Shown one piece after another: positions 8,943-41,565 of a stretch of 64,000 nt of DNA. How positions within the stretch are numbered: position 1 is the first letter of the stretch; every line of letters starts with the position of its first letter. The DNA comes from Solibacillus palustris. GTDB taxonomy: Bacteria > Bacillota > Bacilli > Bacillales_A > Planococcaceae. The stretch covers positions 682,001 through 746,000 of the forward strand of contig NZ_JAKZFC010000001.1 of the NCBI RefSeq assembly GCF_022549215.1, given 5' to 3'. The notes beneath the pieces are model-generated. The model was not told where the DNA came from. It did not search any database and saw only the letters and a program-made list of their open reading frames with translations. The translations under genes were made by a program, and so were the position numbers.

Positions 8943-9180
8943 CTTGTTTCAGCAATTTTCGTTTGTACCATAAGTAAAGTGATAGGTACAGAAGTCCCCT
9001 ACTTCTATAAGTGGGGTTCAAAACCGGCTGAATAGTGGAACTCAGGCTAAGGACGCCGCATCGTGCGGCAACGCCTAAGTGACCAACATCGTGTCGGCCC
9101 ATGCCCGGCGGATGTCACAGATTTTTTTCAAGCCTGCTTGAAAAAAATCTGGACGCAATTACGCCGAGGTGTAATTATAC
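8940..9180 (+). repeat. Modular intergenic repeat, copy 2 (all three modules)
   Basis: The fullest copy. The left edge is TAACTTGTTTCAG. The hairpin module (8963-9022) has GGTACAGAAGT and CCCC-T-ACTT pairing with AAGTGGGG (8996-9016), one T bulged. The two-hairpin module follows: outer stem AGGC/GCCT (9044-9076) with inner stem GCCGC/GCGGC (9055-9069), then GACCAAC/GTCGGCC (9081-9099), both with 5-base loops. The palindrome module is at about 9105-9180 and ends in AATTACGCC-GA-GGTGTAATT. It separates rpoZ from the coaC train. Confidence 0.85.
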
Positions 9181-9202
9181 AGTAAAAATATGTGTTGAGT
9201 TA

Positions 9203-9240
9203 GAGCTCCCTTAGAATCTTTCTTAGGGAGCTTATCCTTT
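9203..9240 (+). terminator. Hairpin upstream of coaC, possible terminator
   Basis: AGCTCCCT pairs with AGGGAGCT, and inside it AGAA pairs with TTCT, leaving a 3-base loop. The T run after the stem is poor (TTATCCTTT), so it could be a weak terminator of the rpoZ unit or a leader structure of the next gene. Confidence 0.5.
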
Positions 9241-9252
9241 GAAAAGGCGGTT

Positions 9253-9819
9253 ATGATGATGAAAAAAAACAATGTATTATTGTGTGTTTCAGGCGGCATT
9301 GCCGTATATAAAGCAGTGGCACTCGTTAGTAAGTTATCGCAGGCTGGAATGAACGTAAAGGTGATTATGACAGCTTCGGCTAGGGAATTCGTGACGCCGC
9401 TAAGTTTTCAAGTGATGTCAAAAAATGATGTGTTTTTTGATACGTTCGATGAAAAAGACTCTAATGTTATTGCACATATTGATTTAGCCGATTGGGCGGA
9501 TTTAATTATTGTAGCACCTGCGACAGCCAATATAATTGCAAAAATGGCACACGGGATGGCAGATGATATGGTAACAACGACATTGCTTGCGACAACTGCA
9601 CCTGTTTGGGTGGCGCCTGCCATGAATGTGCATATGTACGAGCATCCAGCAGTATTACGAAATATTCAACAACTGCATGAAGATGGCATTCGCTTTATCG
9701 AACCGTCTGAAGGGTTTTTAGCATGTGGTTATATTGGAAAAGGGCGCTTAGAGGAGCCTGAAAAAATTACTGCACTTGTTGTGAAGCATTTTACTGAACA
9801 ACGAAGTGATGGGCAATGA
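9253..9819 (+). CDS. coaC: Phosphopantothenoylcysteine decarboxylase (CoaC-type flavoprotein, no CoaB domain)
   Basis: A 188-residue HFCD-family flavoprotein that decarboxylates phosphopantothenoylcysteine to phosphopantetheine in CoA synthesis. The FMN-binding start VLLCVSGGIAVYKA (about 9-22), catalytic-type HIDLADWADLIIVAPATANIIAK (His about 75), PAMNVHMYEHPAV and the substrate clamp GFLACGYIGKGRL are all present. The protein stops after this domain and priA begins four bases before its stop. In B. subtilis the same locus encodes fused CoaBC of about 400 residues; the ligase half is not found here in any frame. Three consecutive ATGs occur at 9253, 9256 and 9259; the ribosome site AAAGGCGG (9243-9250) favours the later ones. 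Confidence 0.88.
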   Translation: MMMKKNNVLLCVSGGIAVYKAVALVSKLSQAGMNVKVIMTASAREFVTPLSFQVMSKNDVFFDTFDEKDSNVIAHIDLADWADLIIVAPATANIIAKMAHGMADDMVTTTLLATTAPVWVAPAMNVHMYEHPAVLRNIQQLHEDGIRFIEPSEGFLACGYIGKGRLEEPEKITALVVKHFTEQRSDGQ

Positions 9820-12224
9820 AGTTTGCGCAAGTCATTGTCGATGTATCGGCCTATCCGGTAGATCGTCCGTTTGATTACGTTATTACAACAGAGTGGGAAG
9901 AATTGATCGATATTGGTTGTCGTGTGAAAGTACCATTTGGACCGCGAAATGTGCTCGGTTTTGTTGTCGGTATTTCGGAGCAATCGGATGTACCTGTTGA
10001 AAAAATGAAGGCAGTAGCACAAGTGCTGGACATTGAATCAATTTTAACCCCTGAAATGCTTGAGTTAGCAAAATGGCTAAAGCATCAAACAATTTGCTAT
10101 GAAATTGATGCCTTACAAGTGATGCTACCAGGTGCGTTACGCGCTAATTATGAAAAATATGCGCTATTACAAGGTGAGGTCACACAATTAGTGCCACAAT
10201 TACAGCCGTATTTTGATAAAACAACAAAAGTAAATATTACACAACTAGAAAAGGCTGATTTATTAAAGCCTTTAAAACGTGCGGTAAATGACGGAATTGT
10301 CGTGATTGAAAACGAAGTAAAGCAAAAAGGGCAAATAAAGCAAGTGCGTAAAGTGCAAATTGCTGCCATTGAACAGTTAGAAATTGTTCAACAACAAATC
10401 GGCAAGCGTTCAGCGAAACAACTCGCGCTTATCGAATGGATGAAGCCTTATGCTGGCGCCATTTTAATGCCAAATGTGATTTGTGAAACGGTAAATGTAT
10501 CGACTGCAGTTTTAAAGGGCGTAATTGAAAAGGGTGCAGCTAATTATTTTCAAGAAGAAGTGTATCGCGATCCATATAAGAAAGAGATTGTTCACACAGA
10601 CTTTTTACAATTAACAGATGAGCAGCACGAAGCATTGACGAAAATTAAACAAGCAATGGATGATGTACGTCAAGAAACTTTTTTACTGCATGGGGTTACG
10701 GGGAGTGGGAAAACCGAAATTTATTTACAAGCGATTCAGCGTGCAATTGCAGATGGTAAAGAAGCGATTGTACTTGTGCCTGAAATTTCATTAACACCGC
10801 AAATGACCGAGCGCTTTAAGTCCCGTTTTGGTGATGAAGTTGCAGTAATGCATAGTGGCTTGTCGGTTGGTGAAAAATACGATGAATGGCGCAAAGTACA
10901 GCAAGGAAAAGTAAAAGTTGTAGTCGGAGCTCGTTCTGCGATTTTTGCACCGTTTAAAAATTTAGGGCTTATCATTTTAGATGAAGAGCACGAATCCACA
11001 TATAAACAAGAAGATTCTCCGCGCTATCATGCTCGAGATGTTGCGATTTGGCGCGGGAATTATTACAATTGTCCAGTCATTTTAGGGAGTGCAACACCTG
11101 CATTAGAATCATTTGCACGTGCCAAAAAAGGTGTGTATACACTATTAACACTGCAAAATCGTGCGAAGAAACAAGCATTACCAACTGTTCATATTGTCGA
11201 TATGCGTGAGCAATTACAAGCGGGCAATCGTTCGATGTTTTCGGAACCGTTAACGGAAGCGTTAAGAGAAAGACTTGAGCGCGGTGAGCAAACAGTATTG
11301 TTTTTAAACCGCCGCGGCTATTCCTCTTTTATACTTTGCCGAGATTGTGGAACCAGCGTGCAATGTCCAAACTGCGATATTTCACTAACGTACCATCGCT
11401 ATCAAGAAAAGCTAAAATGTCATTATTGTGGACATGAGGAATACATCCCACAAACATGCCCTGAATGTCAAAGTGAAAACATTCGCTATTTTGGAACAGG
11501 TACGCAAAAAGTGGAGGAAGAAATTTTTAAGCTTTTTCCACAGGCACAAGTACTACGAATGGACGTAGATACGACGAAGCAAAAAGGATCGCATGAAAAA
11601 ATGCTCGATGCGTTTGGACGTGGGGAGGCAGACATTTTACTTGGCACCCAAATGATTGCTAAAGGACTAGATTTTCCGAATATTACATTAGTTGGTGTGT
11701 TAAGTGCCGATACAAGCTTGCATTTACCGGATTATCGTGCAGCAGAAAAGACATTTCAGCTGATGACGCAAGTAAGTGGACGTGCAGGGCGCCACGAAAA
11801 GCCCGGAGAAGTATTTATTCAAACGTATACACCTGAGCATTATGCTATTGAATTATCAAAAGAACAACTGTACACGCCGTTTTATGAGCAAGAAATGCAA
11901 GTGCGTCATATGGCGGGCTATCCACCATATTATTTTTTAGCACTTGTGCAAGTTTCGCATGAGGATGTTGTGATGGCAGCAGAGTATGCGGGCCGTGTTG
12001 CTGAGTATTTACGCTCAAATTTATCGTTTCAAGTTTCGGTCATTGGACCAACGACGGCAAGTATCGCTCGTCTCCAAAATAGATATCGTTATCAATGTTT
12101 GATAAAATATAAAGTAGAACCTAATTTAATTCCTACGTTATTACAGCTCATTAAGTTGTATCGTTCGGAATGGATTAAAAAGGGCATTGTGTTAACGGTT
12201 GATTTAGATCCTCAGATGATCTAA
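9816..12224 (+). CDS. priA: Primosomal replication protein N', helicase PriA
   Basis: An 802-residue superfamily 2 helicase that reloads the replisome at collapsed forks. The N-terminal DNA-binding domain begins AQVIVDVSAYPVDRPFDY. Walker A GVTGSGKTE is at about 293-301 and the DEEH box at about 389-392. The zinc-binding cysteine pairs run from CRDCGTSVQCPNC through CHYCG and CPEC (about 508-556), and helicase motif VI is QVSGRAGR. Length equals the B. subtilis protein. It overlaps the coaC stop by four bases (ATGA), so the two are translationally coupled. Confidence 0.97.
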   Translation: MKFAQVIVDVSAYPVDRPFDYVITTEWEELIDIGCRVKVPFGPRNVLGFVVGISEQSDVPVEKMKAVAQVLDIESILTPEMLELAKWLKHQTICYEIDALQVMLPGALRANYEKYALLQGEVTQLVPQLQPYFDKTTKVNITQLEKADLLKPLKRAVNDGIVVIENEVKQKGQIKQVRKVQIAAIEQLEIVQQQIGKRSAKQLALIEWMKPYAGAILMPNVICETVNVSTAVLKGVIEKGAANYFQEEVYRDPYKKEIVHTDFLQLTDEQHEALTKIKQAMDDVRQETFLLHGVTGSGKTEIYLQAIQRAIADGKEAIVLVPEISLTPQMTERFKSRFGDEVAVMHSGLSVGEKYDEWRKVQQGKVKVVVGARSAIFAPFKNLGLIILDEEHESTYKQEDSPRYHARDVAIWRGNYYNCPVILGSATPALESFARAKKGVYTLLTLQNRAKKQALPTVHIVDMREQLQAGNRSMFSEPLTEALRERLERGEQTVLFLNRRGYSSFILCRDCGTSVQCPNCDISLTYHRYQEKLKCHYCGHEEYIPQTCPECQSENIRYFGTGTQKVEEEIFKLFPQAQVLRMDVDTTKQKGSHEKMLDAFGRGEADILLGTQMIAKGLDFPNITLVGVLSADTSLHLPDYRAAEKTFQLMTQVSGRAGRHEKPGEVFIQTYTPEHYAIELSKEQLYTPFYEQEMQVRHMAGYPPYYFLALVQVSHEDVVMAAEYAGRVAEYLRSNLSFQVSVIGPTTASIARLQNRYRYQCLIKYKVEPNLIPTLLQLIKLYRSEWIKKGIVLTVDLDPQMI

Positions 12225-12249
12225 TGCATATAGAAAGAGGTAAGAGGTT

Positions 12250-12741
12250 ATGGCAATTAAAGAAGTTATTAAAAATCCGGCAGATGTATTAAACGCACAA
12301 ACAAAAGAAGTAGAAGTAATTGATGAAAAAATCATTGAATTATTAGATGATTTATATGAAACGATGGTTGAGCATGACGGCGTTGGTATTGCAGCACCAC
12401 AAATTAACGTTAGCTTACGCGTTGCAATTGTTGAGCTAGGTGAAGACATTTTAGAAATGATTAACCCAGTTATCATTGAAACTCGTGGAGAAGAAGAAGA
12501 TGTAGAGGGTTGTTTAAGCTTCCCTGATTTATTTGGAATGGTAAAACGCCCGACTTATGTGAAAATCGAAGCGGCTGACCGTGAAGGACGTATTTACGAA
12601 TTAGAAGCAGAAGATTTCGAAGCGCGTTGTATTTTACATGAAATCGATCATTTAGATGGCGTATTGTTTGATTCTAAAATGACACGTGTATTAACAGAAG
12701 AAGAGTTAGAAGAGCTATACGCTGACGCTGAGGAGGAATAA
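12250..12741 (+). CDS. def: Peptide deformylase
   Basis: A 163-residue metalloenzyme that removes the formyl group from the N-terminal methionine of new proteins. The three signature motifs are present: GVGIAAPQ (about 45-52), EGCLSFP with the metal-ligand Cys (about 87-93), and HEIDHLDG (about 131-138) with the two histidine ligands and catalytic glutamate. GAGGTAAGAGG precedes the ATG. It is followed directly by fmt, the enzyme that adds the formyl group. Confidence 0.97.
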   Translation: MAIKEVIKNPADVLNAQTKEVEVIDEKIIELLDDLYETMVEHDGVGIAAPQINVSLRVAIVELGEDILEMINPVIIETRGEEEDVEGCLSFPDLFGMVKRPTYVKIEAADREGRIYELEAEDFEARCILHEIDHLDGVLFDSKMTRVLTEEELEELYADAEEE

Positions 12742-12744
12742 TTG

Positions 12745-13686
12745 ATGACAAAAATCGTTTTCATGGGAACTCCAGCGTTCTCAGCGCCGATTTTACGCAT
12801 GCTGCATGAGGAAGGTTATGATGTATTAGCTGTTGTTACACAGCCTGACCGCCCAGTAGGACGTAAAAAAGTGTTAACTCCACCTCCAGTAAAGGAAGAA
12901 GCGTTAGCACTAGGTTTACCAGTTATTCAGCCTGAAAAATTACGAGGCTCGGAGGAATTACAGCAAATACTTGCGTTAAATCCCGATTTGGTAGTAACGG
13001 CGGCATTCGGTCAAATTTTACCGAAAGAATTACTTGATGCACCACGCTTAGGTTGCATAAATGTACATGCTTCTTTATTACCAGCTTATCGTGGTGGTGC
13101 GCCAATTCACCAAGCGATTATCGATGGTCAAGTAAAAACAGGTGTAACCATTATGTATATGGCTGAAAAGTTAGATGCAGGCGACATTATTTCACAACGC
13201 GACATTGTGATTGAAGATACAGACCACACAGGTGGTATGTTCGACAAATTAAGTGATGTTGGCCGTGAGTTATTAAAGGACACATTGCCGTCAATTATTG
13301 ATGGTACAAATGAGCGCACGGTTCAGGATGAGGCATCTGTAACATATGCAAGTAATATTAGTCGCGAGCAGGAGCTAATTGATTGGAACAAAGATGCAAG
13401 CACATTATATAATCAAGTGCGCGGATTACATCCATGGCCAGTTGCTTATACAACATTCGAGGATGCAAACTTCAAAATTTGGTGGGCAAAGCCAGGCGAA
13501 ACTCAGGCAAATGCTATACCGGGTGAAGTAGTGAAAATTGCAAAAGAATATTTCGAAGTAGCAACAGGCGACGGCACAACATTAGCATTATACGATGTAC
13601 AGCCAGCAGGTAAAAAACGTATGACAGTAGAAGAATATTTACGTGGTACGGGCTCGAAATTACAGATTGGGGACCGTTTTCAATGA
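12745..13686 (+). CDS. fmt: Methionyl-tRNA formyltransferase
   Basis: A 313-residue enzyme that formylates initiator Met-tRNA using 10-formyl-tetrahydrofolate. The start [13 protein letters not shown], the catalytic [17 protein letters not shown] (about 104-120, with Asn, His and Ser) and LDAGDI (catalytic Asp) mark the transferase domain. A C-terminal OB-fold domain follows with LHPWPVAYT at its border. Start at ATG 12745 with AGGAGG at 12731-12736; a TTG three bases earlier is less likely. def ends at 12741 and rsmB overlaps the stop by four bases. Confidence 0.97.
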
Positions 13687-15044
13687 GTAAGAAAAAGCAA
13701 GTCATTTGGGATGGAAATGTACGTGATGCAGCATTAACGATACTCCTCACGGTCGATAAAAGCCAAGCATACAGCAATTTACTATTACACCAAACGATTG
13801 AAAAGTATAAAATTGACGCCAAAGACCGTGGATTATTGACAGAATTAACGTATGGTACGTTACAACATAAGTATACACTTGATTATTATTTAGAGCCGTT
13901 TATTCGTGGGAAAGTGGATATTTGGGTACGTTGGTTACTACGCATGTCACTATACCAAATGCATTATTTAACACGTATTCCAGCACACGCCGCAGTAAAT
14001 GAAGCGGTAGAAATCGCAAAACGTCGTGGTCATAAAGGAATTGCGTCAATGGTCAACGGTATTTTACGTTCGATTTTACGAGAAGGTGTACGTTCGACAG
14101 ATTTAATCGAAAATGCCAATGAGCGTTTAGCCATCGAAACGAGCCATCCACAATGGTTAGTTGATCGTTGGGTAGAAAGCTATGGCTATGAACATACACG
14201 TGAAATGCTACTAGAAAACAATATTGCACCATTACAAACGGTGCGTGTCAATACAACAAAAGCAACGGTAGACCAAGTAATAACTACGCTGGAGCGTGAA
14301 GGCATTAAAGCACGTCGTAGCGAATTTATGCCACAGTGTTTATATATTGAAAGTGGTCAAGCGGCACGTACAGGTGCATTTCGTAATGGTTTAATTACGA
14401 TTCAAGATGAAAGCTCGATGTTACCAGCAACAGTGCTAAATCCACAGCCAGGTATGAAAGTTCTTGATATGTGTGCAGCACCAGGTGGGAAAACAACGCA
14501 TTTAGCGGAAATTATGGACAACGAAGGCTCGATTTTAGCGACCGATTTACATCCGAAGAAACTAGATTTAATCGTAGAAAATCTGGCACGCTTAGGGTTA
14601 GACATTGTTGAAACCGCACCACTTGATGGGCGAAAAGCGGCGAACTTTTTACAAAAAGAAGGCTATGATGCGATTTTAGTCGATGCACCATGCTCAGGCT
14701 TGGGGGTTATGCGCCGTAAACCAGACATTAAATATACGAAGCGCGAAGAGGATTTAGAAAGTTTACAAACAATCCAATTAGCGATTTTAGATAATGCCGT
14801 TCAACTTTTAAAAGACGGTGGACGATTAGTGTACTCAACTTGTACAGTGGATCGTCGCGAAAACGAAGGTACGGTACAAGCCTTCTTACAAGCACATCCT
14901 GCTATGCAGGCAGTGGCTTTAGAAAATTTACCAGCACAACTAGATGCGAAACAACAAGACGGGATGCTACAAGTATTCCCTCAAGATATTGGCAGCGACG
15001 GATTTTTTGTTGCTGCATTCGTAAAAAAAGGAGCGTCCAATTAA
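13683..15044 (+). CDS. rsmB: 16S rRNA (cytosine-967-C5)-methyltransferase
   Basis: A 453-residue RsmB/Sun methyltransferase acting on 16S rRNA with S-adenosylmethionine. An N-terminal NusB-like RNA-binding domain (about 1-145) is followed by the Rossmann methyltransferase domain with [17 protein letters not shown] (about 259-275). Motif IV is DAPCSGLG (about 335-342), and the nucleophile cysteine is in [13 protein letters not shown] (about 384-396). It overlaps the fmt stop (ATGA) and runs into rlmN after 4 bases, as part of the def-fmt-rsmB-rlmN translation cluster. Confidence 0.95.
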
Positions 15045-15048
15045 ACTA

Positions 15049-16197: not shown

Positions 16198-16207
16198 GTG
16201 GACGATA

Positions 16208-16954: not shown

Positions 16955-16957
16955 TCA

Positions 16958-18919: not shown

Positions 18920-18936
18920 GAGTAAGGAGGAATTGG

Positions 18937-19818: not shown

Positions 19819-19820
19819 AC

Positions 19821-21112: not shown

Positions 21113-21122
21113 GAGGAGTAAT

Positions 21123-32317: not shown

Positions 32318-32350
32318 CTTTTTAGCACATTCTTGAGGGGAGGTGACATT

Positions 32351-32587
32351 ATGTCTACAGTAATTGAACGTGTAACAAAAGTAGTAGTTGACCGCTTAGG
32401 CGTTGACGAAAGTGAAGTTAAATTAGAAGCATCATTCCGTGATGATTTAGGTGCCGATTCATTAGACGTTGTTGAACTAGTAATGGAACTAGAAGATGAG
32501 TTCGATATGGAAATTTCTGATGAAGATGCAGAAAAAATCGCTACAGTTGGTGATGCTATCTCATACATCGAAAGCAAAGTAAGCTAA
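32351..32587 (+). CDS. acpP: Acyl carrier protein
   Basis: A 78-residue acidic four-helix protein that carries growing fatty acyl chains. The phosphopantetheine-attachment serine is in [16 protein letters not shown] (Ser about residue 37). GAGGGGAGGTGAC precedes ATG 32351; an upstream in-frame start at 32333 would place the ribosome site inside the gene. It ends the fapR operon. Confidence 0.97.
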
Positions 32588-32603
32588 TAAATAAACGTAA
32601 AGA

Positions 32604-32636
32604 GACAGCCCAAAAAGTATTGACTTTTTGGGCTGT
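32604..32636 (+). terminator. Perfect hairpin after acpP, no T run
   Basis: ACAGCCCAAAAAGT pairs perfectly with ACTTTTTGGGCTGT (14 base pairs, 4-base loop). The following bases are GTCCGTCTC, so it is not a standard intrinsic terminator. It may protect the acpP mRNA 3' end. Confidence 0.55.
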
Positions 32637-32659
32637 GTCCGTCTCAAGTATTAATAATT

Positions 32660-32760
32660 CGCTGTAGGCTGATTTTCGCGGTGGTCAGAAGAAAAGATCG
32701 AATGCTTTGTCACGTCCTGTGACAAAGCATTCATGACAAGCTTCGTGCTAGCCCCCCTCC
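32660..32760 (+). repeat. Two-hairpin repeat, copy 3, after acpP
   Basis: The first hairpin is a perfect 14-pair stem, GAATGCTTTGTCAC/GTGACAAAGCATTC (32700-32732), with the 5-base loop GTCCT. The second is GACAAGC/GCTAGCC (32735-32753) with loop TTCGT. Both correspond to the module in copies 2, 4 and 5. The flanks differ: no TAACTTG edge and no palindrome module, and CTCCTCGGCGCAAAG follows instead. Confidence 0.8.
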
Positions 32761-32770
32761 TCGGCGCAAA

Positions 32771-32812
32771 GGGAATGTTCTAGAATTACTTCTCAGACAT
32801 TCTCTTTTTTGT
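32771..32812 (+). terminator. Terminator downstream of the acpP repeat
   Basis: GAATGT pairs with ACATTC, with inner CT/AG and AGAA/TTCT pairs and small bulges, then TCTTTTTT. It is likely the real end of the fapR-acpP transcript, which would place the repeat inside the 3' untranslated region. Confidence 0.75.
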
Positions 32813-32978
32813 GGTTGAAAATAAGAAAAGTTAGCAAATTATTGTAAAAGTATGCGCCGTATGATTCTCATTTGTTAAATTCCTTGATTTTACGCGTTTT
32901 TTTAGCGACTACCCTTTGCACAATAGTATATAACAATGTAAACTAAACGATAGAAACTAGAAGGAAGGCAGAAAGTCC

Positions 32979-33740: not shown

Positions 33741-33741
33741 A

Positions 33742-36700
33742 ATGTTCCTTAAACGACTTGAAGTAGTAGGATTTAAATCTTTTGCTGAACGGATTGGCAT
33801 TGATTTTGTTCCTGGAGTAACTGCAGTAGTTGGCCCAAATGGTAGTGGTAAAAGTAATGTTACAGATGCCATTCGTTGGGTTTTAGGTGAGCAATCTGCA
33901 AAAAGTCTACGTGGTGCGAAAATGGAGGATGTTATCTTCGCCGGAAGTGAATCACGTAAAGCATTAAATTTTGCAGAAGTAACACTTGTTTTGGACAATA
34001 CAGATGAGCAAATCGCTATTCCATATACAGAAATAAATGTCACAAGACGTGTGTATCGTTCAGGTGATAGCGAATATTTGCTGAACAGTCAGCAATGTCG
34101 CCTGAAGGATATTACGGACTTGTTTATGGATTCAGGTCTTGGAAAAGAAGCGTTTTCGATTATTTCACAAGGGCGTGTTGATGAAATTTTAAACAGCCGT
34201 CCAGATGATCGTCGCAGCATTTTTGAAGAGGCGGCAGGTGTTTTAAAATATAAATTACGTAAGAAAAAAGCCGAGCATAAATTAGTCGAAACTGATGAAA
34301 ACTTAAATCGTGTTCTCGATATTTTACATGAAATCGAAATTCGCCTAGAACCGTTAAAAATCCAGGCTTCTAGCGCAAAAGACTATATTCGCATGACGGC
34401 AGAATTGAAGGACTTTGACATCGCGTTAATGGTCCACGACATGCTAGCACATGATGCAACATTAAAAGCATTTGATGTAGAGCATGGTACATTAGCAATT
34501 TCGGAAAAAGAGCAAGCAACAAAAATGTCCCAGTTTGAGACGAATTTACGTAAAATGCGTAGCGAGTTAAAAACGATTGATGAAGTGCTAGACATCTCAC
34601 AAGAGCAGCTTGTCGAAGCGAGTGCTGAAGTAGAGCGTTGGGAAGGACGTAAAGCATTATTTAATGAAAAACGTTCGAATGCAGAAAAGCAAATCCAACA
34701 ATTAAAACAGTCACTTAAACAAGCGAATGACACAGTTATAGAACTAGTAGGACAAGAGCAAGAAAAACGCAAGCAATTTATCGGAAAGCAAAAAGTAGTA
34801 CAACAAGTGCGTTCATCATTAAAACAAGTTGAACAAGCATTGACACGTACAGCCTCTGAAATTGAACAAGAAATTGAACAGGCGAAAAATACGTTTATTA
34901 ACTTATTAAATGAAGAAGCAACGGTTAAAAACGAACTGAAGCATATTGATCAGCAACTTTCACAAGAGCAGGCTTCTGCAGAGCGAATGACAGGTCGATC
35001 GTCTGAGGTGCAAAAAGAGCTCGCACAGGTAGTTGTAGAACAGCAAACAACAGCACGTGCACTTGAACAATCAGAGCTTGCAGTAAAAGAACAACTTGGT
35101 CGTTATGATGTATTACAAATGCAGCTAAAAACAGCAACAGCTAATTTAGATGAAAAGCAAGCATTGTTATATAAAGCATACCAGCACCATCAACAATTAA
35201 AAGCACGTAAAGAAACGTTAGCCGAGTTAGAGGCCGATTTTTCGGGCTTCTTCCATGGTGTAAAAGAAATACTACTTGCCCGTGATCGTGGTGAGTTACA
35301 AGGAATTGAAGGGGCAGTAGCGGAACTAATTCAAGTAGAGTCGAAATATTCACAAGCACTTGAAACGGCATTAGGAGCAGCTTCACAGCATATTGTGACG
35401 GCCAATGAGCAACACGCACAAAAAGCAATAGGGTGGTTAAAGCAAAAGCGTGCGGGTCGTGCAACATTTTTACCGAAAACTGTTATGCGTTCACGAAAAA
35501 TCCAACCTCATCAATTGCAAGATATTCAGTCGCATCCCGCATATATTGCATTGGCATACGAATTAGTAAGTTATGCACCTGAAAATACGAATATTATCGA
35601 AAATCTTTTAGGTAACGTCCTAGTAGCCGCGAATTTAGAGGGAGCGAGTCAAATCGCACGTATTTTAGGTTTTAAATACCGCGTTGTGACGCTAGAAGGC
35701 GATATCGTCAATGCAGGTGGTTCGTTAACTGGTGGTGCATTAAAGCAACAAAGTTCCCTATTTTCAAGAAAAGCTGAGCTCGAAAAATTAGTGACAACAT
35801 TAGCTGAAATGGAAGCGACGATTCAATCTGCTGAACAAAAGGTTTCAACGAAGAAGTCTGAAATTGCAGAGCTACGTCATACATTAGAAGAGATGAAGTT
35901 ACAAGGTGAGACACTACGTGAGCAAGAGCAAATTCATCGTTCAAAGCTATTAGAGTTGGATATGACGGTAAAGAGCTTACAAACAACGGTTACGTTAACT
36001 GAATCTGAACAATCGACAGTAACAACACGTAAAGAAACGTTAGCCGAACAGCAGCAGCTTTCGACCGTACGTTTAGCACAACTACAAGAAGAATTACAGC
36101 AAGTACAGCAAACGGTTGATGAGCTAACGAAGGCAAAAGAACAAAGTGAAACACAAAAGGATGTGTTGCGTGAACAATTAGCGCAGCAACGTTCAGAACT
36201 AGCTGTTGCGCAGGAGCAGTTAACGCAAGTACAAGCTGCAATTGCAGACATCGAGCTAAGCTTAACAAAAGCGAAAAACCAATCTGATAAAATTTCCCAG
36301 GAAATCGAGTGGATTGAATCTGAAGATGGTGTGAATGGCCCATCTGCTGAAGAATTAGCCCAAACGATTACAGACTGGACAATGAAAAAAGACGCACTAA
36401 CGGAAACGATTCAAAAAAACCGAAAGTCTCGAGATTCATTGCATGAACAAATTACAGAAATTGAAATTCAACTACAAGAAGTACAACGGGTACATAAAAG
36501 CTATGTCGACGCAATTCGCTCATTAGAATTAAAACGTAGTCGTATTGAATTTGAAAAAACAAACTTGCAACAGCTATTACTCGAGCAATATGAGCTGGAT
36601 ATTATTACTGCGCAAGATGAAGCAATCCAGATTGAAGATGTCGAACAAGTGCGTCGTAAAGTGAAGCTATTAAAGCAATCGATTGAAGAATTGGGCCCAG

Positions 36701-37323
36701 TAAACTTGTCGTCAATTGAAGAGTTTGACCGAGTACAAGAGCGCTACTCCTTCTTAAGTGAGCAGCGTGAAGATTTAGTTGCGGCCAAAGATACATTGCA
36801 TAAAGCAATTGGTGAAATGGATGGAGAAATGAGCGAACGCTTTAGCGAAACATTTAAGCAGATTCGTCAGCAATTTGTTGTTTCATTCCGCGAATTATTT
36901 GGTGGTGGTACCGCTGATTTGGTACTGTTAGAACCAGAGAATATATTAGAAACAGGTATTGAAATTATTGCGCAACCGCCAGGCAAAAAGCTGCAAAGTC
37001 TAAGCCTTTTATCCGGTGGTGAACGTGCATTAACTGCAATTGCTTTATTGTTTGCGATTTTGAATACACGTCCAGTACCGTTCTGTGTACTTGATGAAGT
37101 AGAGGCCGCACTTGATGAATCGAATGTTGCGCGCTATAGTGAATATTTACGGAAATTTAGCAGTCAGACGCAATTCATCGTCATTACACACCGTAAAGGT
37201 ACGATGGAAGGTGCGGACGTTCTATACGGTATTACAATGCAAGAATCGGGTGTTTCGAAGCTTGTATCAGTAAAACTAGAGGAAGAACCCGATTTAGTAA
37301 CGCAAGGGAGTGTCGAAAAATGA
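33742..37323 (+). CDS. smc: Chromosome segregation protein SMC
   Basis: A 1193-residue condensin ATPase that organises and separates chromosomes with ScpA and ScpB. The N-terminal head has MFLKRLEVVGFKSFAERI and Walker A GPNGSGKSN (about 32-40). Long coiled coils flank a hinge (about 500-660, with FSGFFHGVKEILLARDRGELQGIEGAVAEL at its start). The C-terminal head has the signature LSLLSGGERALTAIALLFAIL and Walker B FCVLDEVEAALDESN. The start is ATG 33742 with GAGGGGGAA upstream; an extended frame reaching into rnc is rejected. ftsY overlaps its stop by four bases. Confidence 0.97.
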   Translation: MFLKRLEVVGFKSFAERIGIDFVPGVTAVVGPNGSGKSNVTDAIRWVLGEQSAKSLRGAKMEDVIFAGSESRKALNFAEVTLVLDNTDEQIAIPYTEINVTRRVYRSGDSEYLLNSQQCRLKDITDLFMDSGLGKEAFSIISQGRVDEILNSRPDDRRSIFEEAAGVLKYKLRKKKAEHKLVETDENLNRVLDILHEIEIRLEPLKIQASSAKDYIRMTAELKDFDIALMVHDMLAHDATLKAFDVEHGTLAISEKEQATKMSQFETNLRKMRSELKTIDEVLDISQEQLVEASAEVERWEGRKALFNEKRSNAEKQIQQLKQSLKQANDTVIELVGQEQEKRKQFIGKQKVVQQVRSSLKQVEQALTRTASEIEQEIEQAKNTFINLLNEEATVKNELKHIDQQLSQEQASAERMTGRSSEVQKELAQVVVEQQTTARALEQSELAVKEQLGRYDVLQMQLKTATANLDEKQALLYKAYQHHQQLKARKETLAELEADFSGFFHGVKEILLARDRGELQGIEGAVAELIQVESKYSQALETALGAASQHIVTANEQHAQKAIGWLKQKRAGRATFLPKTVMRSRKIQPHQLQDIQSHPAYIALAYELVSYAPENTNIIENLLGNVLVAANLEGASQIARILGFKYRVVTLEGDIVNAGGSLTGGALKQQSSLFSRKAELEKLVTTLAEMEATIQSAEQKVSTKKSEIAELRHTLEEMKLQGETLREQEQIHRSKLLELDMTVKSLQTTVTLTESEQSTVTTRKETLAEQQQLSTVRLAQLQEELQQVQQTVDELTKAKEQSETQKDVLREQLAQQRSELAVAQEQLTQVQAAIADIELSLTKAKNQSDKISQEIEWIESEDGVNGPSAEELAQTITDWTMKKDALTETIQKNRKSRDSLHEQITEIEIQLQEVQRVHKSYVDAIRSLELKRSRIEFEKTNLQQLLLEQYELDIITAQDEAIQIEDVEQVRRKVKLLKQSIEELGPVNLSSIEEFDRVQERYSFLSEQREDLVAAKDTLHKAIGEMDGEMSERFSETFKQIRQQFVVSFRELFGGGTADLVLLEPENILETGIEIIAQPPGKKLQSLSLLSGGERALTAIALLFAILNTRPVPFCVLDEVEAALDESNVARYSEYLRKFSSQTQFIVITHRKGTMEGADVLYGITMQESGVSKLVSVKLEEEPDLVTQGSVEK

Positions 37324-38582
37324 GCTTTTTTAAGCGACTAAAAGAAAAGTTAGTAGGTAGTAACGAAGAACAGAAAGTTGAGCAAGCCGAACTTGGTGAG
37401 CAACAAGTAGTCGAACTGCCTCAGCCAGAAGTTATTGAAGAAACAGTGATACCGGTTCAAGAAGTTGAAAAAGAGATTGAACAAGCAGCTAGAGAAGAAG
37501 TAGAAGCATCATCAACAGCAATAGAACCAGTCGAAGAAGTTTTATTTGGCAATGAGCCAGTTGAAACAGTAGAAGAAATCGTTGAGGAACAAGTAGAAGA
37601 AGAGTCGAAGAAACCTTCTGCATGGTCGATTACGCAAAAATTCAAAGCTGGTTTAGAAAAAACACGTAATTCGTTTACATCAAAGGTTAATGATTTAGTA
37701 GCGCGTTACCGTAAAGTAGATGAAGATTTCTTTGAAGAATTAGAAGAATTACTGTTACAAGCAGACGTAGGGTTTGAAACGGTTATGGATTTAATGGATA
37801 AATTACGCTATGAAGTACAGCGTCAAAACATTAAAGATACAAACGGCATTCAAGCAATTATCTCAGAAAAATTAGTTGAAATTTATGAGTCTGGCGAGGA
37901 AAATTTAACGGGCTTGAATATGCAGCAAAACGGTGATTTAACAGTTATTTTATTTGTAGGTGTTAACGGTGTTGGGAAAACGACGACTATTGGTAAATTG
38001 GCACACCGTTTAAAATCAGAAGGGAAGTCGGTTATGCTTGCCGCGGGTGATACATTCCGTGCAGGTGCGATTGACCAATTACAAGTTTGGGGCGAGCGTG
38101 TCGGTGTTGAAGTGATAGCTCAATCAGAAGGTTCTGACCCAGCTGCTGTAATGTATGATGCAGTTCGTGCGGCGAAAAACCGTGGCGTTGACGTATTAAT
38201 TTGTGATACAGCAGGACGTTTACAAAACAAGGTCAACTTAATGAACGAGCTTGAAAAGGTGCACCGTGTCATTTCACGCGAAATTCCAAACGCGCCACAT
38301 GAAGTATTATTAGCATTAGATGCGACAACAGGTCAAAACGCGCTAGTACAGGCACAAATGTTCAAAGAGGCAACAAATGTTACAGGTATCGTATTAACGA
38401 AACTAGATGGTACGGCAAAAGGTGGTATCGTTTTAGCCATCCGCAACAAATTACACATTCCAGTAAAATTTGTGGGACTTGGTGAAAAAATGGACGATCT
38501 ACAACCGTTTGATGCAGAGCGTTACGTATACGGTTTATTTGCGGATGGTTTAGAAAAAGAGTTGAAAGAAATAGAAGATTAA
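37320..38582 (+). CDS. ftsY: Signal recognition particle receptor FtsY
   Basis: A 420-residue SRP receptor GTPase that docks ribosome-SRP complexes at the membrane. A glutamate-rich N-terminal region (about 10-100) precedes the helical N domain and the G domain. G motifs are GVNGVGKTTTIGKLA (about 218-232), DTAGRLQNK, and TKLDGTAKGG. The acidic region is richer and longer than in B. subtilis FtsY (329 residues), hence the greater length. The ATGA overlap couples it to smc. Its TAA stop forms the start of a repeat copy. Confidence 0.96.
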   Translation: MSFFKRLKEKLVGSNEEQKVEQAELGEQQVVELPQPEVIEETVIPVQEVEKEIEQAAREEVEASSTAIEPVEEVLFGNEPVETVEEIVEEQVEEESKKPSAWSITQKFKAGLEKTRNSFTSKVNDLVARYRKVDEDFFEELEELLLQADVGFETVMDLMDKLRYEVQRQNIKDTNGIQAIISEKLVEIYESGEENLTGLNMQQNGDLTVILFVGVNGVGKTTTIGKLAHRLKSEGKSVMLAAGDTFRAGAIDQLQVWGERVGVEVIAQSEGSDPAAVMYDAVRAAKNRGVDVLICDTAGRLQNKVNLMNELEKVHRVISREIPNAPHEVLLALDATTGQNALVQAQMFKEATNVTGIVLTKLDGTAKGGIVLAIRNKLHIPVKFVGLGEKMDDLQPFDAERYVYGLFADGLEKELKEIED

Positions 38583-38765
38583 CTTGCTTCAGTAGGTTTT
38601 TACGGCTGAATAGGGAAACGAAGGTTAAAAACGTCACGCCCTGTGACAATGCCTTCGTGATCAACTTTTTGTTGACCTAATGCTCCCTCGGATGTCCCAG
38701 ATTTTTTTCGAGTGAACTTGAAAAAAATCTGGACGAAAGTTAGCCGAGGTGTAATTGATTGTTTA
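38580..38765 (+). repeat. Modular intergenic repeat, copy 4 (after ftsY)
   Basis: It begins with TAACTTGCTTCAG, whose TAA is the ftsY stop. The GTACAGAAG hairpin module is absent, and the sequence passes directly to CGGCTGAATAG as in copy 2. First hairpin: CGAAGG/CCTTCG (38619-38657) with inner GTCAC/GTGAC (38633-38647). Second: GATCAAC/GTTGACC (38659-38677), loop TTTTT. The palindrome module (38690-38760) has a CAGATTTTTT/AAAAAATCTG stem centred on TCGAGTGAACTTGA and then GCCGAGGTGTAATTGATTG. Confidence 0.85.
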
Positions 38766-38799
38766 ACGGGCAACGATTTTGTTGCTCGTTTTTCTTTTT
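38765..38799 (+). terminator. Terminator after ftsY and its repeat
   Basis: AACGGGCAAC pairs with GTTGCTCGTT with one G-T pair, followed by TTTCTTTTT. Confidence 0.85.
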
Positions 38800-38842
38800 C
38801 GTAAATTTTGTCACAATCAAAATGAAAGACAAGGGAATTACC

Positions 38843-38871
38843 TTGACAGTGAGCGTTATCACGATTATGAT
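38843..38871 (+). promoter_or_regulatory. Strong sigma-A promoter of ylxM-ffh
   Basis: -35 TTGACA (38843-38848), 17-base spacer, -10 TATGAT (38866-38871). It lies 32 bases before the ylxM start and after the ftsY terminator, so ylxM-ffh is a separate unit. Confidence 0.85.
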
Positions 38872-38903
38872 AAGGTAGACAAAATATGATTGGAGAGATT
38901 AAG

Positions 38904-39239
38904 ATGCTACTTGAAAAAACAACACGCATGAACTTTCTCTTCGACTTTTATCAAGCACTTTTAACAGATAAGCAGCGCAGTTATATGGAGCTTTATTATT
39001 TAGATGACAATTCACTTGGTGAAATTGCCGAAAGCTACAATATTTCGCGTCAAGCTGTTTATGATAACATTCGTCGTACTGAGGCGATGCTTGAAGAATA
39101 TGAAGAAAAACTAAAGCTTTTTGAAAAATTTCAACAACGTCAAGATGTGTTAAAGCAGCTAACAGAGGCTATACAAGATGATGCTTCTACTATAGAAGCG
39201 CGTTTAGCATTAGTTGAACAATTGAAGGAATCGGATTAG
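38904..39239 (+). CDS. ylxM: SRP-associated helix-turn-helix protein YlxM
   Basis: A 111-residue UPF0122/YlxM protein, found with the signal recognition particle gene in Firmicutes and reported to modulate SRP activity in some species. The sigma-70 region 4-like helix-turn-helix is [31 protein letters not shown] (about 35-66). A charged helical tail follows. The start is ATG 38904, since GGAGAG at 38892-38897 serves it; an earlier in-frame ATG at 38886 precedes that site. ffh follows after 12 bases. Confidence 0.93.
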
Positions 39240-39251
39240 GAGGCGAACGAG

Positions 39252-40610
39252 TTGGCTTTTGAAGGTTTAGCAGAGCGACTCCAAGGTACGATCCAAAAGA
39301 TTAAAGGTAAAGGAAAAGTTTCGGAACAAGACGTTAAAGAAATGATGCGTGAAGTCCGATTTGCCTTAATCGAAGCGGACGTAAACTTAAAGGTAGTTAA
39401 GGAATTCGTTAAAAAGGTTAGTGAGCGTGCGGTCGGCATTGATGTAATGAAATCATTAACACCTGGTCAGCAAGTTATTAAAATTGTACAAGATGAGTTA
39501 ACTACATTAATGGGCGGCGAACAAAGCCCAATTAAATTCAGTAACCGTCCACCAACAGTTATTATGATGGTCGGTTTACAAGGTGCCGGTAAAACGACGA
39601 CAACAGGTAAGTTAGCGAACGTTTTACGCAAAAAATATAATAAAAAACCACTATTAGTTGCTGCTGACGTTTATCGTCCGGCTGCGGTTCAACAGCTACA
39701 AACTTTAGGGAAACAATTAAGCTTACCAGTGTTTGCACTAGGTACGGATATTTCTCCGGTAGAAATTGCACGCCAAGCGATTGAACACGCCAAAGAAGAG
39801 CATCATGATGTTGTATTAATCGATACAGCAGGTCGTTTGCACATTGATGAGCAATTAATGCAAGAATTAAAGGATATTCGCGCACTAAAAGAGCCAGACG
39901 AAGTATTCTTAGTAGTGGACTCAATGACAGGGCAAGATGCAGTAAATGTAGCGCAAAGCTTTAACGAAGCTGTAGGCATTACAGGCGTTGTCTTAACAAA
40001 ATTAGATGGTGATACACGTGGTGGTGCGGCACTTTCAATTCGTGCTGTAACCGAAAAACCGATTAAATTCGTCGGTATGGGTGAAAAAATGGACGCACTT
40101 GAGCCATTCTACCCTGATCGTATGGCGTCACGTATTTTAGGGATGGGCGACGTATTATCGTTAATCGAAAAAGCACAAGCAAACGTTGACATGGAAAAAG
40201 CAAAAGAGCTTGAAGAAAAATTCATGACGCAAAGCTTTACATTCGACGACTTTATCGAGCAAATGCAAGCCGTAAAAAAAATGGGTCCATTAGAAGATTT
40301 ATTGAAAATGATTCCAGGTGCCAACAAAATGAAGGGCTTAGACAATGTCAAAGTCGATGAAAAGCAAATGGGACGTATTGAAGCAATTATTTATTCAATG
40401 ACACCTGCTGAAAAAACAAACCCAGAAATCATCTCTTCAAGCCGTAAAAAACGTATTGCAACTGGTTCTGGGACGACAATTCAAGAAGTCAATCGTTTGT
40501 TGAAACAGTTTGAAGAAATGAAAAAAATGATGAAGCAAATGACTGGTATGACGCAAGGAAAAGGCAAGAAAAAGATGAAAATGCCAGGGTTTGACCAATT
40601 ATTTAAATAA
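39252..40610 (+). CDS. ffh: Signal recognition particle protein Ffh
   Basis: A 452-residue SRP54 GTPase that binds signal sequences and the SRP RNA. The N domain starts AFEGLAERLQ and the G domain has GLQGAGKTTTTGKLA (about 105-119), DTAGRLHIDEQL and TKLDGDTRGGAALSI. The methionine-rich M domain (about 300-452) ends in a run with MKKMMKQMTGM. The start is TTG 39252, preceded by TAGGAGGCGAACGAG. SRP RNA itself is not in this window. Confidence 0.97.
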   Translation: MAFEGLAERLQGTIQKIKGKGKVSEQDVKEMMREVRFALIEADVNLKVVKEFVKKVSERAVGIDVMKSLTPGQQVIKIVQDELTTLMGGEQSPIKFSNRPPTVIMMVGLQGAGKTTTTGKLANVLRKKYNKKPLLVAADVYRPAAVQQLQTLGKQLSLPVFALGTDISPVEIARQAIEHAKEEHHDVVLIDTAGRLHIDEQLMQELKDIRALKEPDEVFLVVDSMTGQDAVNVAQSFNEAVGITGVVLTKLDGDTRGGAALSIRAVTEKPIKFVGMGEKMDALEPFYPDRMASRILGMGDVLSLIEKAQANVDMEKAKELEEKFMTQSFTFDDFIEQMQAVKKMGPLEDLLKMIPGANKMKGLDNVKVDEKQMGRIEAIIYSMTPAEKTNPEIISSSRKKRIATGSGTTIQEVNRLLKQFEEMKKMMKQMTGMTQGKGKKKMKMPGFDQLFK

Positions 40611-40636
40611 AAAATATAGGTGTTAAGAAAAAACAC

Positions 40637-40665
40637 TTTACAAACAACCAAGACATTGCTAATAT
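40637..40665 (+). promoter_or_regulatory. Probable promoter of rpsP
   Basis: -35 TTTACA (40637-40642), 17-base spacer, -10 TAATAT (40660-40665). A TATAAT overlaps just downstream but is 20 bases from the -35 box. The rpsP start is 39 bases further on. Confidence 0.55.
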
Positions 40666-40703
40666 AATATCTTGTGTGAAACTTATTCGGAGGTGCTATT
40701 AAA

Positions 40704-40976
40704 ATGGCAGTTAAAATTCGCTTAAAACGTATGGGAGCTAAAAAATCTCCTTTCTATCGTATCGTAGTTGCAGACGCTCGTTCACCACGTGACGGTCGTC
40801 AAATCGAAACAGTAGGTACTTACAACCCACTTACTCAACCAGCTACAGTAGAAATCAATGAAGAGTTAGCTCTTAAATGGTTAGCTGATGGTGCAAAACC
40901 ATCTGACACTGTACGTAACCTGTTCTCAGAACAAGGTATCATGGAAAAATTCCATAACGCTAAATACAGCAAATAA
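40704..40976 (+). CDS. rpsP: 30S ribosomal protein S16
   Basis: A 90-residue ribosomal protein with the standard opening [30 protein letters not shown] (about 3-32) and the later [25 protein letters not shown] precedes the ATG. It begins the rpsP-khpA unit and is followed after 27 bases by khpA. Confidence 0.98.
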
Positions 40977-41003
40977 TTCAATGATTAATTCGGAGGTGGC
41001 TTT

Positions 41004-41234
41004 ATGCAGCAGCTGATTGAAGCAATTGTGAAACCATTAGTCGATTATCCTGAGGACGTACGTATTGAGACGGACGAAACTTCAAATCGAGTTGTTTATA
41101 AGCTTTTTGTTCATCCAGAGGATCGAGGGAAAGTCATAGGCAAGCAAGGACGTGTTGCGAAGGCAATTCGTACGATTGTGTACTCAGCAGCGGGCGGCCA
41201 CCAGAAGAAGACATACGTCGATATATTGGATTAG
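41004..41234 (+). CDS. khpA: KH-domain RNA-binding protein KhpA (YlqC)
   Basis: A 76-residue single-KH-domain protein, partner of KhpB (Jag) in RNA binding and cell-size control in Firmicutes. The KH signature GKVIGKQGRVAKAIRTIV (about 41-58) contains the GxxG loop. CGGAGGTGG precedes the ATG. In B. subtilis ylqD comes next and then rimM; here a terminator and a repeat fill that place. Confidence 0.95.
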   Translation: MQQLIEAIVKPLVDYPEDVRIETDETSNRVVYKLFVHPEDRGKVIGKQGRVAKAIRTIVYSAAGGHQKKTYVDILD

Positions 41235-41237
41235 TAA

Positions 41238-41270
41238 AAGGAGGGTGGCATTTTGCTAACCCTTCTTTTT
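41238..41270 (+). terminator. Terminator after khpA
   Basis: AAGGAGGGT pairs with ACCCTTCTT (one G-T pair) across a 12-base loop, and the stem runs into a string of Ts. Confidence 0.8.
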
Positions 41271-41287
41271 CATATTTGTTATGATAA

Positions 41288-41327
41288 TTCAATCAACAAT
41301 ATTTTATGAATAAGCTAGTTGATTGAA
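41288..41327. repeat. 10-bp inverted repeat before the repeat block
   Basis: TTCAATCAAC (41288-41297) and GTTGATTGAA (41318-41327) are perfect inverted repeats 20 bases apart. They directly precede repeat copy 5 and are followed by AATGGAGGTGGCGAG. Function unknown. Confidence 0.5.
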
Positions 41328-41329
41328 AT

Positions 41330-41565
41330 GGAGGTGGCGAGTGTAGCTGACGGCTAACGCCTTTCGCTACAGAGCGAAGCATCCTGTGGGAACAGCACAT
41401 GTCTATTTGCGACGAAAGCAAAGCGACAGGAGCTACCGACACCTGAGACGCATGGAACAAAAGCTAAGACCGCCACGTCCTGTGGCAACGCTTTTGTGAC
41501 CAACGTCGTGTTGGCCTCGTGCCCACGGAAAGCGTCCACCGGAATGGAAATCAACGGGACTTTAA
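41330..41565 (+). repeat. Composite intergenic repeat, copy 5, between khpA and rimM
   Basis: The outer parts (TTCGCTACAGAGCGAAGC, CATCCTGTGGGAACAGCAC, AAAGCGACAGGAGC, then GGAAAGCGTCC and GGAATGGAAATCAACGG) resemble an intergenic repeat type I recall from many Bacillaceae; this is recollection, not a search. Embedded in it is the two-hairpin module. It consists of AAAAGC/GCTTTT (41459-41495) with inner GCCAC/GTGGC (41472-41486), then GACCAAC/GTTGGCC (41498-41516). The block occupies the slot of ylqD in B. subtilis. Confidence 0.75.

What the first reader, a model, noticed from the sequence alone, without database searches (positions are those of the whole stretch)
9044..41516. Two-hairpin module with compensating base changes in four intergenic copies
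Copies at 9044-9099, 32700-32753, 38619-38677 and 41459-41516 share one plan: an outer stem, an inner 5-pair stem with a 5-base loop, and 1-4 bases later a 7-base stem with a 5-base loop. The inner stem is GCCGC/GCGGC, GTCAC/GTGAC (twice) and GCCAC/GTGGC, so pairs 2 and 4 change on both sides. The outer stem is wholly different each time yet still pairs (AGGC/GCCT, CGAAGG/CCTTCG, AAAAGC/GCTTTT, GAATGCTTT/AAAGCATTC). The second stem is GACCAAC/GTCGGCC, GATCAAC/GTTGACC, GACCAAC/GTTGGCC and GACAAGC/GCTAGCC, keeping the same A-C mismatch. All four are downstream of a gene and in its direction. The pairing is seen directly. That the fold is selected, as a 3' RNA element or as a transposition substrate, is inference.
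Basis: partly seen in the sequence, partly recalled or inferred. Interest (0 to 1): 0.8.

Follow-up and report, generated by a model that had tools for sequence, protein, structure and literature searches.

The report
Mobile double-hairpin that nests in palindromes
The four look-alike double hairpins belong to a database family listed as a small RNA, but here they behave more like a tiny mobile piece of DNA, about 65 letters long, that turns up inside several kinds of larger repeated palindromes and once inside a copy of itself.

Summary
All four copies match Rfam RF01690, Bacillaceae-1, listed as an sRNA without known function. The own genome has 101 matches. Stem covariation is strong.

The better reading is a mobile DNA module rather than an RNA gene. 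Conservation is confined to ~63-70 nt, while the flanks fall into about 6-14 families, by threshold. Empty and filled forms of several palindromic repeats exist, some within one genome or locus. One B1 sits inside hairpin 1 of another. Two of the four window copies are absent from a same-species genome. Both orientations occur in related frames.

No Y1/RAYT transposase was found in the own genome or in seven of 18 relatives, including G061 with 93 copies, so the mover is unknown. The complementary strand folds better in 74 of 82 copies, against a sense 3' RNA element. The published CsrA idea is weakened in copy-rich genomes, yet B1 and CsrA co-occur. Copies lie outside genes (101/101) and mostly behind genes (75/100). 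Mechanism and any RNA role are unproven.

The parts
9031..9099 (+). B1 module (Bacillaceae-1), copy 1
   Evidence: RF01690 match 9031-9097, 67.8 bits; stem 2 ends at 9099
8942..9177 (+). type A palindromic frame around copy 1 (ACTTGTTTCAG ... GGTGTAATTA), behind rpoZ
   Evidence: sequence; same-species G061 keeps only the left hairpin here; the other ten genus genomes compared have no such frame
32689..32753 (+). B1 module, copy 2
   Evidence: RF01690 match 32689-32751, 47.5 bits
32600..32810 (+). type B frame around copy 2, ending in a terminator-like hairpin with a T run; present in G000 only, not in the 11 other genus genomes compared
38609..38677 (+). B1 module, copy 3
   Evidence: RF01690 match 38609-38675, 53.9 bits
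38582..38759 (+). type A frame around copy 3, starting at the ftsY stop codon; shared with same-species G061, a remnant without B1 in G013, not seen in the other genomes compared
41448..41516 (+). B1 module, copy 4
   Evidence: RF01690 match 41448-41514, 74.8 bits
41318..41555 (+). type D frame around copy 4 (GTTGATT ... AATCAAC ends); G004 and G006 carry this frame at the same site without B1
5059..5284 (+). type A frame WITHOUT a B1 module: GAATCAAGTTAAAGCCC stands where B1 sits in other copies
   Evidence: same empty form in other own-genome frames

Best explanation
Bacillaceae-1 (here 'B1') is a non-autonomous mobile DNA module of about 63-70 nt made of two hairpins. It spreads among intergenic sites of Bacillales, often by lodging in the loop or arm of a larger palindromic repeat in place of a few of its bases. 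Both the module and the larger frames that carry it (type A, B, D and others) have moved. The hairpins are kept by compensatory changes because a folded strand, more likely the complement of the Rfam strand, is recognised by an unidentified enzyme or handled by the replication machinery. Copies are tolerated, or kept, mainly behind genes. Shown: family membership, covariation, sharp edges, several different host frames with empty and filled forms, one self-nesting, site differences within a species, intergenic and 3' placement, no Y1 or TnpB match in this genome. Inferred: that it moves as DNA and by itself, how it is cut and joined, what moves it, and that it is chiefly selfish.
For:: in 34 named-species contexts under 50% identical position by position in the flanks (from 81 rows; 103 matches), conservation spans columns 4-73 and is below 0.3 bits outside; the search pattern fixed only columns 16-44; by local alignment the flanks of 95 named-species rows form 6, 10 or 14 families at three thresholds; in Psychrobacillus antarcticus (L247) a B1 lies inside hairpin 1 of another B1 whose 3' arm is gone, near an intact sister; empty and filled frames: in one Rossellomorea locus (L203) the same frame holds 11 nt (three times) or 74 nt with B1; G028 frame D2 15 v 75 nt; type A GAAT-CAAGTT-AAGCC v about 67 nt with B1; type A second position 25-27 v 83 nt; 21 of 51 type A right ends in the own genome have a listed B1 upstream, 30 have none; two of four window copies absent in same-species G061; of 23 G061 copies (the best-scoring of 93), 11 match a held G000 B1 site on both flanks, 11 match none, 1 on one flank; 101 and 93 copies in two genomes of the species, 7 in close relative G013. 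B1 in opposite orientations in related frames (L103; L139 and L161 v L142-L149); head-to-tail tandems with a 63-bp step; true left/right flanks pair better than permuted ones (0 of 5000); compensatory changes, nearly all Watson-Crick; 101 of 101 outside genes.
Against: No mover was found: among ORFs within 800 bp of B1 in 232 loci, the 25 largest similarity clusters looked to me like ordinary paralogues or spurious ORFs in the repeats (smaller clusters not seen). No Y1 in G000, G061, G009, G008 and four more, no TnpB in G000. No target duplication or terminal inverted repeat was seen for B1 itself. No insertion was watched; loss could explain site differences. At rpoZ-coaBC G061 keeps part of the frame, which looks like a deletion as much as a pre-insertion state. 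Most contexts belong to a few shared frames, so many copies may descend from few insertions. Rows for one search had to match my model over its full length, so copies without the edges would be missed. The palindrome preference is modest: junction enclosed by a stem in 94 of 100 contexts v 82% with permuted flanks (best of 12 permutations 86%) and at most 88% at control positions; in a hairpin loop 29% v 24% permuted and up to 37% at a control position, so loops as such are not shown to be preferred. The strand that folds better is opposite to the upstream gene, which this model does not predict.
Confidence: 0.56

Rival explanations
1. Passive passenger: B1 has no mobility of its own. It was captured by several mobile palindromic frames and is passed between frames by recombination or template switching at hairpins.
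For: Frames are themselves polymorphic; most copies sit in a few shared frame families; replaced stretches of a few bases and tandem 63-bp steps fit replication template switching; no enzyme found.
Against: The same sharp edges in roughly 6-14 flank families, self-nesting, and conservation of loops and internal loop across genera point to specific recognition.
Confidence: 0.27
2. Cis-acting RNA element at 3' ends: the hairpins are transcribed with the upstream gene and protect its 3' end, help termination or bind a protein. They spread as part of terminator-like repeats and are kept for this function.
For: Upstream gene on the same strand in 75 of 100 copies; ++ 45 v -- 12, convergent 30 v divergent 13. 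Type B frames end in a terminator-like hairpin with a T run, and at acpP-rnc the frame stands where relatives have a plain terminator.
Against: B1 has no T run of its own. G.U pairs are scarcer than A.C on the sense strand. The complement folds better in 74 of 82. Two of four window copies are missing in a genome of the same species. Repeats avoiding promoters and genes would also collect behind genes.
Confidence: 0.2
3. CsrA-binding RNA on the complementary strand, as proposed in PMC4333381: the loops read AGGAY on the complement and act as decoys for CsrA.
For: PMC4333381 (passages) reports CsrA-motif matches on the reverse complement and uncertainty about the strand. The complement folds better. 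In the named-species set 37 of 68 distinct copies carry GGA in both loops. All 35 B1-bearing genomes of 61 have CsrA v 17 of 26 without B1 (p 1.8e-4); within the family but outside the genus 14/14 v 4/8 (p 0.0096).
Against: In the copies read from copy-rich genomes GGA is rarely in both loops: 2 of 82 distinct copies in G000, 0 of 23 in G061, 0 of 18 in G028, and 0 of 7 in G013 (G061 and G028 are their best-scoring copies only). G000, G013 and G028 have CsrA (G061 not tested). Only 42 of 100 classified copies have a downstream gene that would read the complement as its 3' end. Genome size and kinship confound the co-occurrence.
Confidence: 0.1
4. REP/RAYT-type element moved by a Y1 transposase (TnpA-REP) acting in trans.
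For: Size, hairpins, copy number, intergenic placement; no terminal repeats or target duplication seen; 11 of 18 relatives searched carry Y1 genes, among them B1-rich G002, G003, G007 and G028.
Against: No PF01797 match in G000, G061 (93 copies), G009, G008, G014, G019, G025, G027; the 10 Y1 loci fetched (of 26 matches) lack B1 and frame motifs.
Confidence: 0.07

Closest known systems
Rfam RF01690 Bacillaceae-1 (Weinberg et al. 2010, PMC2864571)
   Same: Same sequence and structure family; all four window copies exceed its gathering score.
   Different: Listed there as an RNA (RNA? Y; cis-reg n; table row seen). Here it shows mobile-module behaviour: nesting, empty and filled frames, site differences; and the complement folds better.
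REP/REPIN elements with RAYT (TnpA-REP): PMC2817692, PMC3116915 (search listings), PMC3733652 (listing and two passages)
   Same: Short hairpin DNA, high copy number, intergenic, composite arrangements.
   Different: No Y1/RAYT match in this genome or in several B1-rich ones; edges are GGAAC and GGCC, not GTAG or CGTC tags; it nests inside other repeats.
MITE-like intergenic repeats of Bacillus such as bcr1 (named in a passage of PMC3733652)
   Same: Non-coding, mobile, intergenic; the type D frame has inverted ends.
   Different: B1 itself has no terminal inverted repeats or target duplication that I could see and uses other repeats as host sites.
Insertion sequences housed in REPs (ISPpu9, PMC8450116, search listing)
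   Same: A mobile element housed inside palindromic repeats.
   Different: B1 is a ~65-nt non-coding module with no transposase gene.

Membership tests
Rfam RF01690 Bacillaceae-1 | score above gathering threshold with full-length match | tested here: met
   4 of 4 window copies, 100 of 101 genome matches over the cut-off
Rfam RF01690 Bacillaceae-1 | conserved two-hairpin structure with covariation | tested here: met
Rfam RF01690 Bacillaceae-1 as an sRNA gene | existence of a discrete transcript | not testable with these tools
   no expression data; BSGatlas counts 8 B. subtilis matches among Rfam hits absent from earlier B. subtilis annotation (passage)
REP/RAYT system | Y1 transposase (PF01797) in the genome | tested here: not met
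   none in G000 and in 7 of 18 others searched, among them G061 with 93 copies; 11 of the 18 have one
REP/RAYT system | GTAG or CGTC tag at one end of the palindrome | tested here: not met
   conserved ends are (AAA)GGAAC and GGCC(TC) in the 34 contexts
IS200/IS605 non-autonomous element | TnpA (Y1) or TnpB in the genome or nearby | tested here: not met
   G000 has neither PF01797 nor PF07282; 10 Y1 loci elsewhere have no B1. TnpB not sought in other genomes
MITE of a DDE transposon | terminal inverted repeats and target-site duplication of B1 itself | tested here: not met
   edges read by eye and in paired empty/filled sites; type D frame ends are inverted, the module's are not
CsrA-sequestering RNA | GGA in both hairpin loops of the complement | tested here: inconclusive
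   2 of 82 (G000), 0 of 23 (G061), 0 of 18 (G028), 0 of 7 (G013), but 37 of 68 in named species
CsrA-sequestering RNA | CsrA present in bearing genomes | tested here: met
   35 of 35 B1-bearing genomes among 61
Intrinsic terminator | T run directly after the hairpin | tested here: not met
   no T run after column 69 of B1; the type B frame does end so

The most novel reading that the evidence does not exclude
B1 is a mobile element of a new kind: a ~65-nt double DNA hairpin that propagates by replacing part of other hairpins, including its own, without Y1, TnpB or terminal repeats, moved either by an unknown hairpin-specific enzyme or by replication template switching at palindromes.
Probability: 0.32. 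Interest if true: 0.8.

Novelty: new variant of a known kind. Interest (0 to 1): 0.57.

Why it matters
An Rfam family annotated as an sRNA may be misread: many 'sRNA' calls from it in Bacillales genomes could be copies of a mobile DNA hairpin. Its host frames come with natural empty and filled forms in single genomes, so the rules of insertion can be worked out directly. If a dedicated mover exists, the element is a handle for finding it; if none does, it is a case of hairpin-driven spread by replication. A host role for the repeats behind genes also becomes testable, because two genomes of one species differ at many sites.

Tried and rejected
RAYT/Y1 mobilisation: judged unlikely for this genome. 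TnpB or guide-RNA link: no PF07282 match in G000. Linked helper gene: clustering of ORFs near B1 in 232 partly overlapping loci showed, in its 25 largest clusters, nothing that I read as a mover. Plasmid or phage carriage: no blastn match of copy 4 in PLSDB or INPHARED at E 1e-5 (one 71-nt query, so divergent copies would be missed). Integron attC: considered from memory of the attC consensus, not tested by a tool, set aside. tRNA stems as a G.U control: 17 tRNAs in held loci, not pursued, so the scarcity of G.U has no RNA control. Replication strand: 61 v 32 leading/lagging in G061 if the origin is at the record start, which was assumed; gene direction confounds it. Literature: searches listed no paper whose title, abstract or seen passages treat Bacillaceae-1 as a mobile element; some searches looked for REP-like or MITE-like relatives, and nothing listed was seen to be the same; only open-licence PMC papers are held, and I read passages, not whole papers. 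The regex class counts are crude (16 of 101 unclassified, some visibly misplaced) and carry no claim here.

An earlier count gave 12/10/1 for the comparison; the output shows 11/11/1, used here.
Full report
What was reported is there. The four copies were read at 9031-9099, 32689-32753, 38609-38677 and 41448-41516. Rfam names them: all four match RF01690, Bacillaceae-1, at 47.5-74.8 bits against a gathering score of 35. The family was published in 2010 with the marks RNA 'Y', cis-regulatory 'n' (table row in PMC2864571). BSGatlas counts 8 matches in B. subtilis among Rfam hits absent from earlier B. subtilis annotation (passage in PMC8208703). A 2014 paper noted that its discoverers were not confident of the strand and that the reverse complement resembles CsrA sites (passages in PMC4333381). 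I call the element B1.

Copy number and distribution. The own genome (G000, 3.99 Mb draft) has 101 matches, 100 over the cut-off; 150 of 444 first-look candidates were scored, so there may be more. A second genome of the species, G061, has 93, and the close relative G013 has 7. Of 61 relatives 35 have B1, including all 15 of the genus in that set (stricter filters and at most 69 candidates scored per genome).

Structure. On 29 diverse own-genome copies, 14 of 19 pairs show a change on both sides, in 76 cells against a shuffle mean of 24.8; 84.8% of cells are paired against 27-36% when slid. Over all 82 distinct ungapped copies it is 86.5% against 28-36%. The rows are related and the structure was read from them, so these controls are not probabilities. 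In three sets of distinct ungapped rows (82 own-genome, 68 named species, 48 from G061, G013, G028 and a few copies of other relatives) the stems are almost wholly Watson-Crick, with G.T 20, 9 and 4 against A.C 49, 31 and 6, leaving out pairs 11-49 and 52-68. Pair 52-68 is A.C in 74 of 82, 55 of 68 and 46 of 48. On the complement these are G.U pairs. With the consensus structure the complement is more stable in 74 of 82 copies (mean -20.2 v -15.0 kcal/mol) and its free fold is lower in 75 of 82. So if one strand's fold is selected, it is more likely the complement of the strand in Rfam. I had no known-RNA control for the scarcity of G.U.

Boundaries. Among 81 named-species rows I kept 34 whose flanks share under 50% identity position by position. 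Conservation rises at AAA-GGAAC, runs through GCTAAG, hairpin 1, CAACG, TGACC, hairpin 2 and GGCC, and falls to background after about CTCAG. The search pattern had fixed only columns 16-44, though rows had to match my model over its full length. These 34 are not 34 independent settings: with gaps and both orientations allowed, the 60-nt flanks of 95 named-species rows fall into 6, 10 or 14 families at local-alignment scores of 24, 28 and 32 (24 is the 99.9% point of shuffles), and 274 rows of all sets into 3, 10 or 16, most rows lying in a few large families (single linkage).

Host frames. In G000 B1 sits in several larger repeats: type A (left end TTTAACTTGATTCAG, right end GGCGTAATTGAT), a second position inside the AT-rich hairpin of type A, type B with a terminator-like end, and types C and D. 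In G028, in most of the 30 copies read, it sits within large imperfect palindromes, for instance with ends GTTGATT/AATCAAC or CACATGG/AATGTG. The same frames exist without B1. Of 51 type A right ends in G000 (up to 3 mismatches), 21 have a listed B1 upstream and 30 do not. The window holds such an empty type A frame at 5059-5284.

Empty against filled. Type A: GAAT-CAAGTT-AAGCC empty, about 67 nt in place of CAAGTT when filled. Type A second position: 25-27 nt in four empty frames, 83 nt in the filled one read. Frame D2 in G028: 15 v 75 nt. Frame E in one locus of Rossellomorea sp. BNER (L203): 11 nt three times and 74 nt once. Type D at khpA-rimM: G004 and G006 have the frame with a short hairpin, G000 and G061 with B1. 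In the measured pairs the net gain is about 56-63 nt, a little less than the conserved stretch, so a few target bases seem to be replaced; whether they went at insertion or diverged later cannot be told.

Self-nesting and tandems. In Psychrobacillus antarcticus (L247) one B1 is interrupted inside hairpin 1 by another B1, its 3' arm missing, while a sister copy about 900 bp away is whole. Two places in G028 have head-to-tail B1 with a 63-bp step, the joint falling in hairpin 2. B1 also occurs in opposite orientation in related frames: G009 at khpA-rimM against G000's nested copies, and L139 and L161 against L142-L149 in G028.

Turnover. For the four window sites in same-species G061: ftsY-ylxM and khpA-rimM carry B1; acpP-rnc and rpoZ-coaBC do not. 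At acpP-rnc none of the 11 other genus genomes read has the type B frame. At rpoZ-coaBC G061 keeps only the left hairpin of the frame, and the other ten genus genomes read have neither frame nor B1. Of 23 G061 copies compared (the best-scoring), 11 match a held G000 B1 locus on both flanks, 11 match none and 1 matches on one side; G000's list may be incomplete.

Placement. With a simple gene caller of my own, 101 of 101 copies fall outside called genes. Upstream/downstream gene strands relative to B1 are ++ 45, +- 30, -+ 13, -- 12, with one undetermined; ++ against -- gives p 1.3e-5 and convergent against divergent p 0.014 by binomial test, which ignores shared descent. This fits both a role behind genes and simple survival where insertions do least harm.

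Palindrome preference. Over 81 contexts true left and right flanks pair better than permuted ones (mean -10.2 v -8.8, 0 of 5000 permutations as strong), and 15 of 81 rank in the best five. In a second test on 100 contexts (longer flanks) the junction is enclosed by a stem in 94% v 82% with permuted flanks (best of 12, 86%) and 78% at control positions (highest 88%). It lies in a hairpin loop in 29% v 24% permuted, and up to 37% at a control position. So palindromic surroundings are favoured modestly, loops as such are not shown to be, and the contexts are not independent.

What moves it. Not, it seems, a Y1/RAYT enzyme in this genome: PF01797 has no match in G000 nor in G061, G009, G008, G014, G019, G025 or G027, though 11 of the 18 searched have one, B1-rich G002, G003, G007 and G028 among them. 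The ten Y1 loci fetched, of 26 matches, carry neither B1 nor frame motifs. PF07282 has no match in G000. The largest clusters of neighbouring ORFs showed no candidate. An unknown enzyme, a lost one, or replication template switching all remain open.

CsrA. The published idea is not dead. GGA stands in both complement loops in 37 of 68 named-species copies, and all 35 B1-bearing genomes of 61 have CsrA against 17 of 26 without B1 (p 1.8e-4; within the family outside the genus 14/14 v 4/8, p 0.0096), though kinship and genome size confound this. But among copies read in G000, G061, G028 and G013 both loops carry GGA in 2 of 82, 0 of 23, 0 of 18 and 0 of 7, and copies more often lie in the sense of the gene before them.

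Verdict. The finding is a true set of members of a known Rfam family. The evidence gathered here favours a mobile DNA module that lives in, and partly replaces, other hairpins, with 0.56 confidence. Searches listed no paper that I saw saying so.

Noticed in passing
window 5059-5284: An empty type A palindromic frame (no B1) close to copy 1; a natural empty-site control in the window itself.
   Followed up: yes
window 3184-3224 and 8976-9016: 41-nt inverted pair (93%) CCCCACTTATAGAAGTAGGGG...; the 8976 arm is the left part of the type A frame of copy 1, the 3184 arm stands apart in inverse orientation, perhaps a remnant.
   Followed up: partly
window 32600-32810 v relatives (L089-L103): At acpP-rnc the type B frame stands where same-genus genomes have only a plain terminator hairpin: a repeat seems to have taken over the terminator.
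   Followed up: partly
G000 type A copies, e.g. window 8940-8949 and 38580-38589: Type A frames often start with TTTAACTTG, in some cases with the TAA being the upstream gene's stop codon, suggesting a TTTA-like target of the frame.
   Followed up: partly
L203 about 7267-7680: Three copies of one frame in a row in Rossellomorea sp. BNER, only the middle one filled with B1.
   Followed up: partly
L098, L099, L100, L101 (G008, G005, G012, G007): ftsY and ylxM are about 8.7 kb apart in L098-L100, and ftsY falls outside the stretch in L101, against about 0.1-0.3 kb in the other genomes read: a large insertion or rearrangement there.
   Followed up: no
G028:C1:2674309-2676437 (L138, L158): Four B1 copies on one strand within 2.2 kb.
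   Followed up: no
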